From NCBI GenBank assembly GCA_025698865.1, contig JAILWQ010000001.1, forward strand, positions 434,001-498,000: 64,000 nt of DNA, in the 5' to 3' direction. This stretch comes from Erythrobacter sp. GTDB taxonomy: Bacteria; Pseudomonadota; Alphaproteobacteria; Sphingomonadales; Sphingomonadaceae. Each line of letters begins with the position of its first letter. The first letter of the stretch is position 1. The notes under the pieces are model-generated. The model did not search any database and had not been told where the DNA came from. It saw only the letters and a list, made by a program, of their open reading frames with translations. Of the stretch, positions 5,168 to 14,498 are shown in pieces. The position numbers and the translations under genes were made by a program.

Positions 5168-5313
5168 CACTCTCGCCCATGCGCTTTTCCCCCGCCCTCC
5201 CCGCTCCTTTCGCCAGGCGGGGTGGCCGGGCGGCGTGTTTTGCGTCAGGACAGTGTAACACCCGGTCCATGTCCAACAGGGATGGCCGGCCGGACGACAA
5301 CGGGAGAGATACG

Positions 5314-7103
<1,790 letters not shown>

Positions 7104-7110
<7 letters not shown>

Positions 7111-8223: not shown

Positions 8224-8889
8224 ATGAGAGCCCTCGGCCTTTTCATCCTCGCCCTGACCGTGTCGGCTTGCGGTGCCGTTCCGGATTTCCGCCGCGATAC
8301 GCGCGTTGAACCGGGTGCCGTCCCGCATATCCCGAACGTGGAACAGCCGGGAGAGAACACCTGCCTCGTCCGGCTGAGCGCGAACGGATCGACCTTCTCG
8401 CCGCTGCCCGACCGGTATTACGGCGGCGGTTGCCAGGCTGTCGGGAGCGTGCAGCTCAGCGCGCTCAGCGGCGATGCCGGCAGCTTCGCGGTTTCCAATA
8501 TCGGACCGGTGACCTGTCCGCTCGCCAATCTGTTCGCGGCCTGGGCTCGATACGGGGTCGATCGGGCGGCACGCCAGATCCTCGGGAGCGCGCTCGTCCG
8601 GATCGAGACAATGGGTAGCTATTCCTGCCGCAATGTCGCCGGGACCAGCCGCCGCTCGGCCCATTCGCGGGCAGAGGCGATCGACGTCAGCGCCTTCGTC
8701 CTCGCCGATGGCCGGCGGATTTCGGTGAAGCAGGACTGGGACGACGGAAACCGGGCGGAGCGGGAGTTTCTCCGGGTCGTCCACGGCAGCGCCTGCAAGC
8801 GGTTCGGCACGGTGCTCGGCCCCCAGTACAACGCCGCTCACCGCGATCACTTCCACCTGGAACAGGGTGACGGTAGCTTCTGCCGCTAG
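8224..8889 (+). CDS. Extensin-like C-terminal domain lipoprotein
   Basis: A 221-residue protein starting at ATG 8224 with AAGGTAGG upstream. The signal ends in a lipobox (LTVSAC, Cys17), so it should be lipidated and anchored in the cell envelope. The rest is an extensin-like C-terminal domain: conserved Cys residues (ENTCLVRL, GGGCQAVG, GPVTCPLA, SYSCRN, GSACKRF, GSFCR) and the metal-peptidase-like pairs RSAHSRAEAIDVSAF and AAHRDHFHLE, resembling the HxxxxAxD and HxH zinc motifs of LAS/VanY-type D,D-peptidases. The role is likely in peptidoglycan or envelope handling; activity is not proven for the family. The stop codon overlaps that of the convergent regulator. Confidence 0.82.
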   Translation: MRALGLFILALTVSACGAVPDFRRDTRVEPGAVPHIPNVEQPGENTCLVRLSANGSTFSPLPDRYYGGGCQAVGSVQLSALSGDAGSFAVSNIGPVTCPLANLFAAWARYGVDRAARQILGSALVRIETMGSYSCRNVAGTSRRSAHSRAEAIDVSAFVLADGRRISVKQDWDDGNRAEREFLRVVHGSACKRFGTVLGPQYNAAHRDHFHLEQGDGSFCR

Positions 8890-9527
8890 GCCGCCGAGAT
8901 TCGCGGACCCGGCATTCCCGGCCCTGCCATCATCGCCTCGATCCGGCAGCGGACCGCATCGGCGGCATGCGAGGCGCCGAGCTTCTGCATCATGTTGGCA
9001 CGATGGATTTCGACCGTGCGCGGACTGATGCCCAGTTCGCGCGCAATGCCCTTGTTGCTCGATCCTTCGGCAAGCAGGTCGAGCACCTCGCGCTCGCGGC
9101 CGGTCAGCGTGCTCAACCGCAGCTTCGCATCGACCGTCCGCTGGTGCTCGGCTCCGCTTCGCAGGGCTTCTTCCCACACCGTTTCCAGCGTCTCGCGCAA
9201 TTGCGCGCGCCGCAGGGGCAGGCCGAGGAATCCCAAAGCGCCCTGCTTCATCGCGCGGACCACGGCGCCCGGATCGGGTTCGTAGGCGGTGCCGATGATG
9301 GGCAGCCAGATGCCGAGCCTGGACAGCTTGCCCGCCACCGCCTCGATCCCGCCCGACGTATCGTCGTTGCGGCACAGGATCAGACCGCGGCGCGGGGGAC
9401 GATCGTCGAATTCCTCCGCGCCTTCGTAGATCTCGGCATGGCAGCCGATGCTCATCAAGGTCCGGGACTGCTCCGCGCGCCCTCGGGACGATCGATCCGT
9501 AACATGCACCACCAGCCCCTCGAACAC
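8886..9527 (-). CDS. LuxR/FixJ-type DNA-binding regulator with degenerate receiver
   Basis: A 213-residue protein. The GTG at 9527 was chosen because GGGAGAC lies six bases upstream; a TTG at 9569 would add 14 residues containing two Cys. The N-terminal ~115 residues align with a response-regulator receiver, but the phospho-acceptor strand reads GLILCRNDD with no Asp at the usual position, and the conserved Lys of the KP motif is replaced (FLGLPLRR). The C-terminal GerE domain is intact: LTGREREVLDLLAEGSSNKGIARELGISPRTVEIHRANMMQKL in pieces (about residues 145-190). It is therefore probably a phosphorylation-independent or ligand-controlled regulator. It lies downstream, on the same strand, of the Anbu operon across a 170-bp A+T-richer gap. 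Confidence 0.8.
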   Translation of the reverse strand: MFEGLVVHVTDRSSRGRAEQSRTLMSIGCHAEIYEGAEEFDDRPPRRGLILCRNDDTSGGIEAVAGKLSRLGIWLPIIGTAYEPDPGAVVRAMKQGALGFLGLPLRRAQLRETLETVWEEALRSGAEHQRTVDAKLRLSTLTGREREVLDLLAEGSSNKGIARELGISPRTVEIHRANMMQKLGASHAADAVRCRIEAMMAGPGMPGPRISAA

Positions 9528-9581
9528 ATGCGTCTCCCTGCTTCCGCAATCGGAGCAAGTAACCCGCAAATTCAGTATTCA

Positions 9582-9699: not shown

Positions 9700-10452
9700 C
9701 TACGAATTGTCTTCGCGATAGAAGCTGTAGTCGGGCAGTGAATGAAACGCCTCTTTCAGCGCATCGCCCCAGCTCGAGGAGATCGCCTGAAAATAGCTGT
9801 CGTCATGCGCGATCCGTCGCTCGTGGCTCGCTTCGAACGTGTCGCGCTCGATCACCATCAGGTCCAGCGGCAGGCCGACCGAAAGGTTCGCCTTGAGCGT
9901 CGAATCGAACGAGACCATCAGCAGCTTGGCGGCATCTTCCAGGCTCATCGTCCGGTCGTAGCCGCGGATGATGATGGGCCGCCCGTATTTGGTCTCGCCG
10001 ATCTGGAAGAACGGCGTGTCCATGCCCGCTTCGATGAAATTGCCTTCCGGATAGACGAGGAACAGACGCGGTTCCATTCCGCGGATCTGGCCGGCCACGA
10101 TGATCGAGGCCGTGAACCGGTCGCGGCCGCGGATGCCGTTGGCCTCCTGCCGATCGGAGATGATCTCGCGCAGCAACGTCCCGATCTCGCTGGCGACCTG
10201 GAACATGGTCGGCGACTTGAGCAGGGTGTTGTGCCGGTCCTCAGGTGCCTTGGTCCGCTCCTCCAGCAGGCTCACGACGGACTGGGTGCTCGCGAGATTG
10301 CCCGCCGTCATCAGAGTGATGATCCGCTCTCCCGGCACCTGCCAGCTGAACATCTTGCGAAAGACGGAGATGTTGTCGACACCCGAATTGGTGCGCGTGT
10401 CGCTCATCAGGACGAGCCCGCGCTCGACGAGCATACCGACACAATAGGTCAT
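9700..10452 (-). CDS. Anbu-type proteasome-like peptidase
   Basis: A 250-residue Ntn-hydrolase of the bacterial proteasome-homologue class called Anbu. Removal of Met1 exposes Thr2 (MTYCVGM), the predicted nucleophile; Asp18 in MSDTRTN and Lys33 in VFRKMF complete the proteasome-type active site. Later GRPIIIRGYDRTMSLEDAAKLLMVSFDSTLKANLSVG is typical of the family. There is no propeptide, as usual for Anbu. Known Anbu proteins self-assemble into open helical or ring oligomers, and the natural substrate is unsettled. It follows the transglutaminase gene by 9 bp (TAAGGAAATTCCATG, which supplies a GGAA ribosome site), last in a four-gene unit. Cytoplasmic. Confidence 0.92.
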   Translation of the reverse strand: MTYCVGMLVERGLVLMSDTRTNSGVDNISVFRKMFSWQVPGERIITLMTAGNLASTQSVVSLLEERTKAPEDRHNTLLKSPTMFQVASEIGTLLREIISDRQEANGIRGRDRFTASIIVAGQIRGMEPRLFLVYPEGNFIEAGMDTPFFQIGETKYGRPIIIRGYDRTMSLEDAAKLLMVSFDSTLKANLSVGLPLDLMVIERDTFEASHERRIAHDDSYFQAISSSWGDALKEAFHSLPDYSFYREDNS

Positions 10453-10461
10453 GGAATTTCC

Positions 10462-11277
10462 TTACTGCTGTACCTGCCGCTGCTCCACCGCCACGGCGAC
10501 TTCGAGAGCCTGCGTCGTGGTGCCGAAGCTGATCCCGGTGATGGGCGCGGCGTCGCTGTAGTCCCGTCCGGTGGCGACGCGGACATAGCGTTGATCGGGG
10601 CTGATGCCATTGGACACGTCGAAACCGACCCAGCCGAGCCCCTCGACATGGGCTTCGGACCAGCCATGGGTTGCTTCCTGATCGATGCGATCGTCCATCA
10701 TCAGGTAACCGCTGACATAGCGCGCCGGAATGTCCAGCAATCGCGCCGCGCCGATGAAGATGTGGGAATGGTCCTGACACACGCCCTTCCCCTGCTCCAG
10801 CGCCTCCTCGGCCGGCGTATCGACCCGCGTCGTTCCGATGCGGTATTCGACCTGTTCGAGGATGCGCGCCGACAGGCGGTGGAGCATGTCCAGCGGTGCG
10901 AGACCTTCGTCGCGCACGCCCTTGACCAGCGCCTTCATCCCTGCGCCCGGGCGGGTCAGCGGAGTCTGGCTCTGGAACGTCCAGAGGGGCAGGTGACCGG
11001 CATGCTTGCCGATGACACCGGCGAAATCGTGCGTGTCGACGGTGCCGCTGCACGTCACGACGACCTGCGTCGCGCCCGGCTCCACCCCGACCAGAGTGGT
11101 CGTGTTGTGATGCTGATCGTCATAGGTCAGCTCGGTATGGGCGTTTTCGTATTCCATCGTCCATTCGAGGATTTCCTGCCCCTGCGTTTCCTTAGGGGTC
11201 AGGCGCAGGCGCTGAAGCGCATGCACCACCGGCTGATCGAAGGAATAGCGGGTCGTATGGCGGATCGCGAGGCGCAT
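10462..11277 (-). CDS. Bacterial transglutaminase-like cysteine peptidase (Anbu-associated)
   Basis: A 271-residue protein with the N-terminal bacterial transglutaminase-like beta domain (RHTTRYSFDQPV...LRLTPKETQGQ, residues ~5-90) and a papain-fold catalytic domain. Triad: Cys167 in GKGVCQDHSHIF, His204 in THGWSEA and Asp220 in VGFDVSNG. Start: the ATG overlaps the stop of the alpha-E gene as TAATG, indicating translational coupling. In the conserved Anbu neighbourhood this enzyme is expected to cleave or cross-link amide bonds in a peptide made by the accompanying ATP-grasp ligase (proposed by comparative genomics, not tested here). No signal peptide, so it acts in the cytoplasm. Confidence 0.9.
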   Translation of the reverse strand: MRLAIRHTTRYSFDQPVVHALQRLRLTPKETQGQEILEWTMEYENAHTELTYDDQHHNTTTLVGVEPGATQVVVTCSGTVDTHDFAGVIGKHAGHLPLWTFQSQTPLTRPGAGMKALVKGVRDEGLAPLDMLHRLSARILEQVEYRIGTTRVDTPAEEALEQGKGVCQDHSHIFIGAARLLDIPARYVSGYLMMDDRIDQEATHGWSEAHVEGLGWVGFDVSNGISPDQRYVRVATGRDYSDAAPITGISFGTTTQALEVAVAVEQRQVQQ

Positions 11278-12221
11278 TAGGCGAGGAACCTGTAATCTTC
11301 CGAGATCGCCTGCGCGATCGCCGAATTGGTGGAGATGAACTCGAGGATGAACTCGTGCAGCCCCTTTTCGAAAACCGCGTCGATGGTCACATCGGCCAGG
11401 CGCGTGTCGGCATCGCGCATCAGGGCGTGGCTCTGCCCCTCGTGCCCGTGAATGCGCGCGAGCGATGCGAGCTGATCGCGCAGAGCCGAATGGCAATAGG
11501 CGAGACTGCGGGGGAACCGGCCGTCCAGCACGAGGAACTCGACGATGCCCTTGGCGTCGATCTGGCCCGCATTCAGCCAGCGATAGGCGCGGTCTCCGGA
11601 AACGGAGCGCAGCACCGTATCCCACTGCCCCGTATCGAGGCTGGAGCCGACATAGGAGAGCGACGGGAGCAGCAGGTAGTATTTGATGTCGAGGATCCGA
11701 GCGGTGCTGTCCGCCCGCTCGATAAAGGTCCCTGCCCGGGCGAAATGGTAGCCTTGGTCGCGCAGCATCGATCCCCCGATCGCGCCGTGGGCCAGCGTTC
11801 CCGCCTGACGGATCATGGCGACCACCTCGCCCACCCGCTGTTCGGGCACGGGCTTGGCGAGGATGTCCTTGATCTGGATCCAGCTGTCGTTGATCGCCTC
11901 CCACAACTCGCCGCTCACCGCGTTGCGGGACTGGCGCGCATTGTCGCGCACCTGGCCGAACATGGCGAGCACGCTCTGGGGGTTCTCCTTTTCGCGCAGC
12001 ATGAAGTTCCACGCCTGCATGCCGGTATAGCTGCCGTGGCGCGCTTCGTAATTGCGGCGCAGCCCGGCGGTCGCGATGACCGAGCGCCATTCCTCCTCGG
12101 CCGTCACCAGATCGCGGGTCAGCGCCATGCGCACCCCGGCATCGAGCAGCCGCGCGGTGTTTTCCGCCCGCTCGAGATAGCGGAACATCCAGAACAGGGC
12201 GTTGGCAGTCCGGCCTAGCAT
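11277..12221 (-). CDS. Alpha-E domain protein (DUF403)
   Basis: A 314-residue, almost entirely alpha-helical protein. The diagnostic N-terminus is MLGRTANALFWMFRYLERAENTARLLD (in pieces: LFWMFRYLERAENTARLL), and repeated helices carry Glu-rich faces such as FIERADSTARILDIKYY. The family gives its name to the alpha-E fold and always travels with circularly permuted ATP-grasp and transglutaminase genes; it is thought to be a scaffold or peptide carrier in peptide ligation, but no activity is established. GGAGA lies nine bases before the ATG at 12221. The stop overlaps the transglutaminase start by one base, and the ATP-grasp gene ends 16 bp upstream, so the three genes are one operon. Confidence 0.92.
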   Translation of the reverse strand: MLGRTANALFWMFRYLERAENTARLLDAGVRMALTRDLVTAEEEWRSVIATAGLRRNYEARHGSYTGMQAWNFMLREKENPQSVLAMFGQVRDNARQSRNAVSGELWEAINDSWIQIKDILAKPVPEQRVGEVVAMIRQAGTLAHGAIGGSMLRDQGYHFARAGTFIERADSTARILDIKYYLLLPSLSYVGSSLDTGQWDTVLRSVSGDRAYRWLNAGQIDAKGIVEFLVLDGRFPRSLAYCHSALRDQLASLARIHGHEGQSHALMRDADTRLADVTIDAVFEKGLHEFILEFISTNSAIAQAISEDYRFLA

Positions 12222-12237
12222 GAGAATGTCTCCGGCA

Positions 12238-13665
12238 TCAGTCTTTCAGCACCCATGTGTCCTTGGTCCCGCCGCCCTGGCTCGAATTGACGACCAGCGA
12301 TCCCTTCTTGAGCGCGACGCGCGTCAGGCCGCCCGGCGTGATGTCGATATTGTCGGGCGAGACGAGGACGAATGGCCTCAGATCGACATGCCGTGGCGCA
12401 AGGTCGCTCTTGGTAAAGATCGGACAGGTCGAGAGGGCGAGCGTGGGCTGCGCGATGTAGTTTTCCGGCCGCGCCTCGATCTTCTTGCGGAATTCGGCGA
12501 TCTCCGCCTTGGTCGAGGTCGGGCCGATCAGCATCCCGTAACCGCCCGAACCGTGGACTTCCTTGACCACCAGTTCGGCGAGGTTGTCGAGCACGTATTT
12601 CAAACTGTCCGCGTCCGCGCAGCGCCAGGTCTCGACATTGGGCAGCAGCGGTTTCTCGCCGGTGTAGAACTCGACGATCTCGGGCATGAAGGAATAGATC
12701 GCCTTGTCGTCGGCCACGCCGGTGCCGGGCGCATTGGCGATGGTAATACCGCCTGCGCGATAGACGTCCATGATGCCGGGCACGCCCAGCACGCTGTCGG
12801 GATTGAACGTCAGCGGATCGAGAAACTCGTCGTCCACCCGGCGATAGATCACGTCGACCGGCTCGTAGCCGCGGGTCGTGCGCATCTGCACCCTGCCCCC
12901 GACCACGCGAAGATCGCTACCCTCGACCAGTTCGGCGCCCATCTGGTCGGCGAGGAAAGCGTGTTCGAAATAGGCCGAGTTGTAGATGCCCGGCGTCAGC
13001 ACGGCGACATTGGGCCGCCCCTGCGTCATCTGAGGCGCGCAGGCGGCGAGGCTCTTGGCCAGACGGCGGGGATAGTTCGACACGCTCTCGACCGGAACGC
13101 GCATGAACAGTTCCGGGAACATCGCCATCATCGTCTCGCGGTTCTCCAGCATGTAGGAGACGCCGCTGGGCGTGCGGGCATTGTCCTCTAGCACGAAGAA
13201 CTCGTCCGGCCCTGTGCGAACGAGGTCGATGCCGACGATGTGTGTGTAGACCCCGCCCGGCGGAGTGAAGCCGACCATGTTGGGGAGCCAGGCGGCGTTG
13301 TTGCGGAACAGCCGTTCCGGTACCCGCCCGGCGCGGATGATCTCCTGCCGGTGATAGAGATCGTGCATGAAGGCATTGAGCGCGCTCACCCGCTGCTCGA
13401 TCCCCCGAGTCAGCCGGCGCCATTCGCCGGCATCGATGATGCGCGGCACCATGTCGAAGGGGATCAGCCGCTCCTCGGCCTCGTTCTCGCCATAGACGTT
13501 GAAGGTAATACCGGTGCGGCGGAACTGCGTTTCGGCATCGCGGTGCTTGCGCGCCAGATATTTCTGGCCCTGTTCGGCGAACCACTGATGATATCCGGCA
13601 TAGGCATCGCGCACACCGCCATCCGCCGTATGCATCTCGTCGAAATATTCGCCCGTACCTGTCAT
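12238..13665 (-). CDS. Circularly permuted ATP-grasp peptide ligase (DUF404/DUF407)
   Basis: A 475-residue protein. Characteristic blocks run in the permuted order: GITFNVYGENEAEERLIPFD and PRIIDAGEW (residues ~55-85), PGGVYTHIVGIDLVR and FFVLEDNARTPSGVSYMLENR (~150-190), VDVIYRRVDDEFLDPL, NAPGTGVADDKAIYSF, KEVHGSGGYGMLIG, and the end VVNSSQGGGTKDTWVL. ATP-grasp enzymes form amide bonds through an acyl-phosphate; this branch is predicted to build a small peptide or modify a protein. The ATG at 13665 was chosen since GGGGCTC precedes it and the upstream 16 residues look non-coding. First gene of the Anbu unit; the alpha/beta hydrolase upstream ends 62 bp away and may or may not share the transcript. 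Confidence 0.9.
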   Translation of the reverse strand: MTGTGEYFDEMHTADGGVRDAYAGYHQWFAEQGQKYLARKHRDAETQFRRTGITFNVYGENEAEERLIPFDMVPRIIDAGEWRRLTRGIEQRVSALNAFMHDLYHRQEIIRAGRVPERLFRNNAAWLPNMVGFTPPGGVYTHIVGIDLVRTGPDEFFVLEDNARTPSGVSYMLENRETMMAMFPELFMRVPVESVSNYPRRLAKSLAACAPQMTQGRPNVAVLTPGIYNSAYFEHAFLADQMGAELVEGSDLRVVGGRVQMRTTRGYEPVDVIYRRVDDEFLDPLTFNPDSVLGVPGIMDVYRAGGITIANAPGTGVADDKAIYSFMPEIVEFYTGEKPLLPNVETWRCADADSLKYVLDNLAELVVKEVHGSGGYGMLIGPTSTKAEIAEFRKKIEARPENYIAQPTLALSTCPIFTKSDLAPRHVDLRPFVLVSPDNIDITPGGLTRVALKKGSLVVNSSQGGGTKDTWVLKD

Positions 13666-13727: not shown

Positions 13728-14498
13728 TCAGACGGTTTCGAGTTCCCCCAGCACCGCGTCGATCGCGTCCTTCGAATAGACGAAGCCCATGTGGGAGCAC
13801 CGGACGGACACCGCGCGGTCGCGCTCGCCCGCCCTGCCGCAGGCGCAACGCGGGCGGACCACGCCGTCGAGCGGGCTCCACAGGGCGACCGTCTCGACCG
13901 GAGGCTTGGCGGCCGGATCGGCGTCGAATTCGGGTTCGTCCACGCGGTGCCCGGCGATCGCCTGGTAGGCCCGCCAGCCATTGTTGGCGCGCGGGGAGCC
14001 CGAGAACGGCGAGCCCATGGTGATGACCTTGGCGACCTTGTCGGGATGGTGTTTGGCCAGTTCGCGCGCGATCACGCCGCCGAGGCTCCAGCCGACCAGC
14101 ACCAGCTTCTCGCCGCGGCGGTCGTAGAGATCGATCAGGCGCTCCTCCACTTTGCCGAAGCGTTCGGCCGTGGCGCCGAGATTGTAGCCCATGCCCCATC
14201 GCTTGACGCGGTGACCGGCTTTCTCGAGCTGGCGCGCCATGTAGCGCATGCGGATCGGATGGGCGCCGAAGCCGGGCAGCAGCATGACGGAGCGGGGGTT
14301 GGCGGAGGGCGCGATCTCGTGTTCGCGGAAGGCGCGCTTCAGCGGCTCGATCACCCACGTCATCTCGTTGAGCAGCAGCAGCGCGCGCGGACCCCGCACA
14401 TCATCGGGACCAGGCTCGCGCGCCAGCTCCCAGCGTCGCCTCAATTCGGCGCGGGTCCAGACGCTGTCCTCGCTACGGCTGAAAAGCGGTTCTGACAT
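13728..14498 (-). CDS. Alpha/beta hydrolase
   Basis: A 256-residue cytoplasmic hydrolase: LLPGFGAHPIRMRYMARQL forms the oxyanion-hole region, Ser138 sits in LVGWSLGG, and FVYSKDAIDA lies near the C-terminus with His in CSHMGFV as a likely triad member; an Asp is probably in the VALWSPLDGVV strand. A cluster of Cys (RPRCACGRAG, VRCSHMG) is unusual for the fold. The family resembles PGAP1/lipase-like acyltransferases; the substrate is unknown. It starts 110 bp from divergent uvrB. Confidence 0.8.
   Translation of the reverse strand: MSEPLFSRSEDSVWTRAELRRRWELAREPGPDDVRGPRALLLLNEMTWVIEPLKRAFREHEIAPSANPRSVMLLPGFGAHPIRMRYMARQLEKAGHRVKRWGMGYNLGATAERFGKVEERLIDLYDRRGEKLVLVGWSLGGVIARELAKHHPDKVAKVITMGSPFSGSPRANNGWRAYQAIAGHRVDEPEFDADPAAKPPVETVALWSPLDGVVRPRCACGRAGERDRAVSVRCSHMGFVYSKDAIDAVLGELETV

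What the first reader, a model, noticed from the sequence alone, without database searches (positions are those of the whole stretch)
9700..13665. Complete four-gene Anbu module: ATP-grasp ligase, alpha-E protein, transglutaminase, Anbu peptidase
Four adjacent minus-strand genes form a self-contained set: a circularly permuted ATP-grasp ligase, an alpha-E protein, a transglutaminase-like peptidase and a proteasome homologue. Junctions are 16 bp, a TAATG overlap and 9 bp, so this is one operon. Active-site residues are all readable (Thr2/Asp18/Lys33 in Anbu, Cys167/His204/Asp220 in the transglutaminase). Comparative genomics linked these families before, with a guess that they make and then cleave a peptide or tag, but the substrate is still unknown. 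The neighbouring alpha/beta hydrolase (13728-14498) and the receiver-degenerate LuxR regulator (8886-9527) flank it on the same strand and may be accessory parts.
Basis: partly seen in the sequence, partly recalled or inferred. Interest (0 to 1): 0.75.

Follow-up and report, generated by a model that had tools for sequence, protein, structure and literature searches.

The report
Canonical Anbu proteasome-like four-gene operon
This is an intact copy of a bacterial gene set that was already described (an ATP-using ligase, a helical partner protein, a transglutaminase-like enzyme and the proteasome relative Anbu); the four genes belong together, the flanking hydrolase does not, and what the set acts on is still unknown.

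Summary
On the minus strand lie CP-ATP-grasp (12238-13665), Alpha-E (11277-12221), a transglutaminase-like protein (10462-11277) and Anbu (9700-10452), with junctions of 16 bp, a 1-base TAATG overlap and 9 bp, and the named catalytic residues present. It is the published Anbu operon in its published gene order (PMC6376114, PMC5666114), so a new member of a known kind. New here is comparative. 76 of 80 named loci hold the four genes in this order. Congeners G017 and G575 lack Anbu, Alpha-E and CP-ATP-grasp, while in G017 the hydrolase stays in place. In Qipengyuania mesophila the block sits apart from the hydrolase, without LuxR. Dependence runs one way: Anbu genomes nearly always have Alpha-E (62 of 63 in a class sample, 158 of 161 in a phylum sample), whereas 74 of 232 Alpha-E genomes lack Anbu. 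This fits Anbu acting on the product of the ligase core. The hydrolase is a fixed neighbour, LuxR optional. Alpha-E gives a confident all-helical model without a Foldseek match in the PDB. Substrate unknown.

The parts
12238..13665 (-). Circularly permuted ATP-grasp ligase, 475 aa (PF14403/PF04174)
   Evidence: Pfam 550 bits; PDB 3n6x E 5e-194; only PF14403 match in the own genome; 196 of 475 positions kept in at least 98% of rows
11277..12221 (-). Alpha-E protein, 314 aa (PF04168), all-helical, two ER motifs (E17-R18, E168-R169)
   Evidence: Pfam 287 bits; only PF04168 match in the own genome; AlphaFold2 model mean pLDDT 90.4, pTM 0.89; no Foldseek match in the PDB at E <= 0.001
10462..11277 (-). 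Transglutaminase-like cysteine hydrolase/transferase, 271 aa, C167-H204-D220
   Evidence: Pfam; PDB 3isr E 2e-14 over residues 139-252; triad in 116 of 116 rows
9700..10452 (-). Anbu, 250 aa, N-terminal nucleophile Thr2 (Thr1 after Met removal), Asp18, Lys33; Anbu-1 type S1 pocket by reading (T21, F31, T49, L53, T56 in window numbering)
   Evidence: PDB matches 5loy, 5nyj, 5nyf, 5nyw, 5lox; residues kept; pocket residues of Anbu-1 and Anbu-2 from PMC5666114

Best explanation
These four genes are a standard Anbu-1 operon (about 0.97 sure). Most likely way of working (about 0.45): the ATP-grasp protein, with Alpha-E as its dedicated partner, activates a carboxylate as acyl phosphate and couples it to an amine, making a small peptide-like or isopeptide product on a metabolite or protein; the transglutaminase-like enzyme cuts or transfers within that product; Anbu, an open-ring N-terminal-nucleophile hydrolase, acts last, on something that only this ligase core makes. 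The set would be a make-and-break amide cycle, used under nitrogen limitation at least in some Pseudomonas and Burkholderia. Shown here: gene identity, catalytic residues, block inheritance and the one-way dependence of Anbu on Alpha-E. Inferred: order of action, product, physiological role. Substrate not found in any paper passage seen here.
For: Family and structure matches. Catalytic residues kept. Order and spacing kept: 76 of 80 named loci; median gaps 6, 3 and 23 bases with n 113, 116 and 114 (both locus sets, some genomes twice). Anbu, Alpha-E and PF14403 all without match in G017 and G575, block elsewhere in L144. One-way dependence: Anbu with Alpha-E 62 of 63 (class sample of 240) and 158 of 161 (phylum sample of 397), Alpha-E without Anbu 21 of 83 and 74 of 232. 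13 of 13 class genomes with only a divergent Anbu also have Alpha-E, in no case seen within 4 kb. Published: the Yersinia bercovieri ATP-grasp of this operon releases phosphate from ATP (passages). Nitrogen link: Burkholderia cluster of DUF404/407, DUF403 and two transglutaminase genes under NtrC/sigma54 (passages); P. putida PP_2686-2688 up 11- to 15-fold in nitrogen limitation (first strain column; passages); marine metagenome correlation with urea domains (passages).
Against: YbAnbu, HyAnbu and PaAnbu cut none of three proteasome substrates, and no specific complex between YbAnbu and its operon partners was found. The authors of PMC5666114 hold that Anbu's inhibitor binding and pockets favour protein degradation over a peptide-synthesis system. 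In the P. putida table the Anbu-like gene PP_2685 itself changed only 1.12-fold in the first column, although the text cites induction in earlier work. Anbu-type genes without Alpha-E and CP-ATP-grasp exist: three genomes of one phylum genus, and the divergent ones of G054/G059; L105 keeps an Anbu with dN/dS 0.14-0.21 and no Alpha-E or CP-ATP-grasp in its genome. Sigma54-like sites are not enriched upstream of the ATP-grasp gene in this clade (12 of 112 at 9 or more of 12 positions, against 8-9% in controls), so the nitrogen link is not shown for this organism. The co-occurrence tests are not corrected for shared ancestry, the two samples overlap, and 9 of the 13 divergent-Anbu genomes have the two genes on different contigs, so a link across a contig break is not excluded there.
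Confidence: 0.5

Rival explanations
1. Tag-and-degrade: the ligase attaches a peptide or amino acid to proteins as a mark, and Anbu degrades or deconjugates marked proteins, as with Pup or ubiquitin.
For: Proposed in the literature quoted in PMC6376114; Anbu binds proteasome inhibitors and has many sites in a ring; ligase and peptidase-like protein in one operon.
Against: No cleavage of proteasome substrates and no complex with partners; none of the six proteins scanned is an AAA+ unfoldase; the core exists without Anbu in 74 of 232 Alpha-E genomes. A tag gene was not searched for.
Confidence: 0.2
2. Metabolite conjugation: the pair works like glutathionylspermidine synthetase and amidase, making and splitting a small amide, with Anbu as an amidohydrolase like penicillin acylase.
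For: The one solved relative of the ligase found by sequence is annotated as a putative glutathionylspermidine synthase; Ntn hydrolases that cut other amide bonds are known (discussion); nitrogen-limitation expression in other species.
Against: Anbu resembles proteasome beta subunits most closely among Ntn hydrolases; the annotation of 3n6x is itself 'putative'.
Confidence: 0.22
3. A six-gene module that includes the alpha/beta hydrolase and the LuxR regulator.
For: Same strand, close by; hydrolase at 45 and LuxR at 44 of 80 named loci (matches over 60 bits); in L105 Anbu and LuxR stay together after the other three are gone; S138, D211 and H236 of the hydrolase kept in 8 of 8 aligned rows (that these are the triad is inference).
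Against: Hydrolase stays in module-less G017 and is left behind where the block lies elsewhere (L144). LuxR has no match at 4 of 35 congeneric loci that keep Anbu and evolves fast (median 49% identity against 73-86% for the four). Neither is matched over 60 bits at the loci of more distant groups (L145-L156).
Confidence: 0.05
4. Four genes that are merely adjacent, without common function.
For: None found.
Against: Order kept in 76 of 80 loci, joint absence and relocation, co-occurrence in genomes.
Confidence: 0.02

Closest known systems
Anbu operon of Yersinia bercovieri, Pseudomonas (PA1733; PP_2685-2688) and others (Iyer et al. 2009, not held, cited through PMC6376114 and PMC5666114)
   Same: Same four families; PMC6376114 describes four genes in conserved order, listed as ATP-grasp, alphaE, transglutaminase-like, Anbu
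   Different: Nothing of substance seen: other species and flanks; no excess of sigma54-like sites in this clade
Cluster I35_5080-83 of Burkholderia cenocepacia (DUF404/407, DUF403, two transglutaminase-like genes; NtrC/sigma54 regulon)
   Same: ATP-grasp, Alpha-E and transglutaminase core
   Different: The four genes as annotated in the paper include no Anbu; the fourth is a large second transglutaminase-like protein
CP-ATP-grasp/Alpha-E fusion proteins (about 800-1000 aa frames)
   Same: Same two families in one frame (inferred from frame length; in genome G301 both families match one 859-aa frame)
   Different: Fused; the two single matches in the window's genome lie in separate frames
HslV and 20S proteasome beta subunits
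   Same: Ntn fold, Thr/Asp/Lys site
   Different: No AAA+ partner among the scanned neighbours; the own genome has one further PF00227 match on contig 34, probably HslV (inference)

Membership tests
Anbu (Anbu-1) | Best solved relatives are Anbu structures | tested here: met
   the five best PDB matches, E 7e-86 to 2e-62, are three named Anbu and two named 'Peptidase' (5lox is Anbu; 5nyw recalled as Anbu); an archaeal-type proteasome beta subunit only at 2.5e-4
Anbu (Anbu-1) | Catalytic Thr1, Asp17, Lys32/33 without propeptide | tested here: met
   T2, D18, K33 with Thr directly behind the start Met
Anbu (Anbu-1) | Anbu-1 S1 pocket (T20, F30, T48, L52, S55 in P. aeruginosa; not the basic pocket of Anbu-2) | tested here: met
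   Read off by position from the window protein (T21, F31, T49, L53, T56 with Met as 1) against residues quoted; Thr at the last position, as PMC6376114 gives for YbAnbu; no structural superposition made
Anbu (Anbu-1) | Open dodecameric ring | not testable with these tools
   Needs protein
Four-gene Anbu operon | ATP-grasp, Alpha-E, transglutaminase-like, Anbu in this order on one strand | tested here: met
   order shared by 76 of 80 named loci
Four-gene Anbu operon | One transcript | tested here: inconclusive
   Junctions of 16, -1 and 9 bp without terminator-like sites on the strand, but one such site inside the ATP-grasp gene; no expression data
Four-gene Anbu operon | NtrC/sigma54 control under nitrogen limitation (reported for some relatives; not a defining feature) | tested here: inconclusive
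   No excess of sigma54-like sites in 112 upstream regions; the consensus used is recalled; one order relative, L070, has a 10 of 12 site
ATP-grasp ligase, active | Nucleotide-site residues intact | tested here: inconclusive
   196 of 475 positions kept in at least 98% of rows, but individual ATP or Mg ligands were not mapped
Transglutaminase-like core | Cys-His-Asp triad | tested here: met
   C167/H204/D220 in 116 of 116 rows

The most novel reading that the evidence does not exclude
Anbu is not a general protease but the dedicated last enzyme of a widespread amide-forming pathway: it cleaves a product that only the ATP-grasp/Alpha-E pair makes, and Alpha-E, a possibly internally duplicated helical protein without a fold match in the PDB, is the carrier or acceptor-binding subunit of that ligase. 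The one-way dependence of Anbu on Alpha-E, seen also for divergent Anbu genes not found beside an Alpha-E gene (13 of 13 in the class sample; 9 of these on other contigs), would be the trace of this.
Probability: 0.3. Interest if true: 0.65.

Novelty: new member of a known kind. Interest (0 to 1): 0.3.

Why it matters
Anbu has crystal structures but no known substrate in the papers seen. The comparative result narrows the search: look for substrates that depend on the ATP-grasp/Alpha-E pair, in deletion strains rather than with proteasome peptides. Close relatives that lack the block and rare lineages that kept only Anbu are natural controls. The window itself is an ordinary example of the system.

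Tried and rejected
Sigma54/NtrC control in this clade: scanned the window (134 matches against a shuffle mean of 172) and 112 upstream regions (no excess); not supported, though a weak or shifted site could be missed. One of the 112, L096, had its start misplaced by the script and counts among the 12 (11 of 111 without it). The best-looking site is upstream of L070 (G043).

Conserved footprint upstream of the ATP-grasp gene (34 rows) or of the LuxR gene (31 rows): apart from flanking coding sequence only a GGGG ribosome-site-like stretch and a weak T-rich stretch stood out.

Hydrolase and LuxR as module parts: rejected or downgraded. Gamma-glutamyltranspeptidase and SSF symporter next door as parts: GGT matched 16 of 42 and the symporter 33 of 42 fetched stretches of the first set, and 6 and 18 of 80 in the second (stretches often end before them), so no link claimed.

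Fold relatives of Alpha-E: no sequence match in the PDB up to E 10, no Foldseek match at E <= 0.001; helical proteins are hard for such searches, so this is not proof of a new fold. Internal duplication of Alpha-E: two ER motifs by eye and one weak half-against-half BLAST hit (21% identity, E 3e-4 with composition correction off and a search space of one short sequence), suggestive only.

Literature on a function: (65 found none; of the 50 papers and the 216 only 20 each were listed, and no listed title besides those read concerned this operon's function; the BPH paper PMC5777263 was seen as a listing only). The library lacks most subscription papers, and Iyer et al. 2009 was not held. Only passages of papers were read, no whole text; one search gave no useful passage on Alpha-E.

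Not resolved: 4 of the 36 congeneric Anbu matches carry a stop inside the match, perhaps at the variable C-terminus; not checked one by one. Coordinates of the Anbu genes of G383, G530 and G613 fell below the listing limit, so their neighbourhoods were not read. The transglutaminase was not searched genome-wide, so its absence from G017 (only locus L073 seen) and G575 (not looked at) is open. The hydrolase was not searched in G575.
Full report
What is there. Four minus-strand genes lie at the given places: ATP-grasp 12238-13665, Alpha-E 11277-12221, transglutaminase-like 10462-11277 and Anbu 9700-10452, with junctions of 16 bp, a one-base TAATG overlap and 9 bp. Pfam names them CP_ATPgrasp_2 (550 bits), Alpha-E (287), Transglut_core with Bact_transglu_N (78 and 65) and Proteasome (36); NCBIfam has no model above its cut-off for any of the four. 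The Anbu protein matches five Anbu-type sequences of the PDB (three so named, two named 'Peptidase') far better than a proteasome beta subunit. The ATP-grasp matches 3n6x over residues 6-475, the transglutaminase matches 3isr over its core, and Alpha-E matches nothing in the PDB by sequence up to E 10. The genome has one Alpha-E and one PF14403 match, both here, and two PF00227 matches, Anbu and one on contig 34 that is probably HslV.

Residues. In 117 aligned Anbu rows T2, D18 and K33 stand in 116, 117 and 116, the rest being gaps; in 116 transglutaminase rows C167, H204 and D220 stand in all (the window and loci scoring over 100 bits, L038 left out, some genomes twice). Read by position, the S1 pocket is of the Anbu-1 kind described in PMC5666114 (passages). 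The ATP-grasp is the slowest to change of the six genes (median 86% identity in the genus), then Anbu 83%, Alpha-E 76%, transglutaminase 73%, hydrolase 71%, LuxR 49% (31 to 35 loci each).

Within the genus. Of 37 genomes (the own one and 36 others) 36 have Anbu, 36 have Alpha-E and 37 have the hydrolase. Of the 35 other loci read, 34 show all four genes in the same order (L038 with the ATP-grasp cut by the contig end) and one (L066) ends inside Alpha-E; LuxR has no match at L051, L057, L060 and L066. In G017 the hydrolase is followed directly by the extensin-like gene, where elsewhere the block and LuxR stand between them (L073), and PF14403 is absent from that genome. A further congener of the phylum sample, G575, has no match for Anbu, Alpha-E or PF14403. 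This agrees with gain or loss as a block, with the hydrolase outside it.

Named relatives. 76 of 80 hold ATP-grasp, Alpha-E, transglutaminase and Anbu in this order and orientation (L096 with a cut ATP-grasp included); L107 and L126 are cut by contig ends; L105 has only Anbu and L108 only transglutaminase and Anbu. In L105, a Croceibacterium MAG, an intact Anbu follows the hydrolase directly and LuxR follows Anbu, and neither Alpha-E nor PF14403 is found in that genome; its dN/dS against five linked relatives is 0.14-0.21, within the 0.10-0.24 of the linked pairs, so loss of the partners is recent, or Anbu still has a use, or the MAG is misassembled. In L108, also a MAG, hydrolase and transglutaminase are truncated where the other two genes are missing. 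In L144 (Qipengyuania mesophila) the block lies beyond the extensin-like gene, away from the hydrolase and without LuxR. The hydrolase is at 45 and LuxR at 44 of the 80 loci (matches over 60 bits); at the loci of more distant groups (L145-L156) neither is seen.

Wider co-occurrence. In a class sample of 240 genomes Anbu is found in 63 and Alpha-E in 83, 62 in common (Fisher 7e-38, not corrected for ancestry). Of 56 strong Anbu places in 50 genomes 42 lie within 4 kb of an Alpha-E gene; 49 of the 50 genomes have Alpha-E. The exception, G207, has a PF14403 gene at a contig end, so an assembly gap is likely. Thirteen genomes have only a divergent Anbu (94-115 bits; one, G135, matches over 105 positions only). 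None of these is seen within 4 kb of Alpha-E, yet all thirteen have Alpha-E: on the same contig 370 kb or more away in four, on another contig in nine. In a phylum sample of 397 genomes (overlapping the class sample) Anbu is in 161 and Alpha-E in 232, 158 in common. The three exceptions are one genus (G383, G530, G613) and also lack PF14403. Two order-level genomes with a divergent Anbu (G054, G059) lack Alpha-E and PF14403 as well; the one from G054 matches the same five PDB sequences as the window's Anbu and no others at E <= 0.001. The other way round 74 of 232 Alpha-E genomes have no Anbu match. So Anbu rarely occurs without Alpha-E, while Alpha-E often does without Anbu. This direction suggests that Anbu acts on what the core makes; that step is inference.

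Alpha-E. A 32-row alignment gave an AlphaFold2 model with mean pLDDT 90.4 and pTM 0.89, helices only. Foldseek against the PDB returned no match at E <= 0.001. The ER motif of the Pfam description occurs twice (E17-R18, E168-R169; both invariant in 32 rows), and a weak half-against-half match hints at an internal duplication.

What is known. [quoted passage not shown] PMC5666114 describes the open dodecamer, Anbu-1 and Anbu-2, and prefers a role in degradation (passages). Under nitrogen limitation P. putida PP_2686-2688 rise 11- to 15-fold in the first column of the table while PP_2685, the Anbu-like gene, stands at 1.12; the text cites induction of all four in earlier work (passages; the column headings were not seen). 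NtrC/sigma54 drives the Burkholderia cluster without an annotated Anbu (passages); [quoted passage not shown] I found no excess of sigma54-like sites in this clade.

Verdict. The hydrolase is a fixed neighbour, the LuxR gene an optional local one. The one-way dependence and the lack of a fold match for Alpha-E are the useful additions. The mechanism remains open; a ligase core with a dependent terminal hydrolase is the best reading of the evidence.

Noticed in passing
L105 8001-8732: An Anbu gene beside the hydrolase and LuxR in a Croceibacterium MAG, with no Alpha-E or CP-ATP-grasp match in the genome and dN/dS as in linked copies.
   Followed up: partly
L144 4777-8732: In Qipengyuania mesophila the four-gene block sits beyond the extensin-like gene, without LuxR and with Anbu only 75% identical to the window's while UvrB is 93% identical, so it may have been moved or reacquired.
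   Followed up: no
L062 8765-9035 and L065 8831-9101: In two congeneric loci about 270 bases separate Alpha-E and the transglutaminase match, where the other loci have them nearly touching; content not looked at.
   Followed up: no
L071 7670-8392 (G054) and G059: Divergent lone Anbu-like genes in genomes without Alpha-E or CP-ATP-grasp; the L071 copy stands among genes without evident link to it.
   Followed up: partly
window 5302-7110: Gamma-glutamyltranspeptidase, another Ntn-type hydrolase (recalled), about 2.6 kb from Anbu on the other strand; matched in 16 of 42 fetched stretches of the first set.
   Followed up: partly
window 8886-9569: LuxR-type regulator whose best NCBIfam model is FixJ (below cut-off) and which shows no receiver domain in Pfam at E 0.01; it changes much faster than its neighbours (median 49% identity in the genus).
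   Followed up: partly
window 13728-14498: Alpha/beta hydrolase with the GWSLGG motif, in 37 of 37 genomes of the genus sample and placed between uvrB and the block, also in G017 where the block is absent; function unknown.
   Followed up: partly
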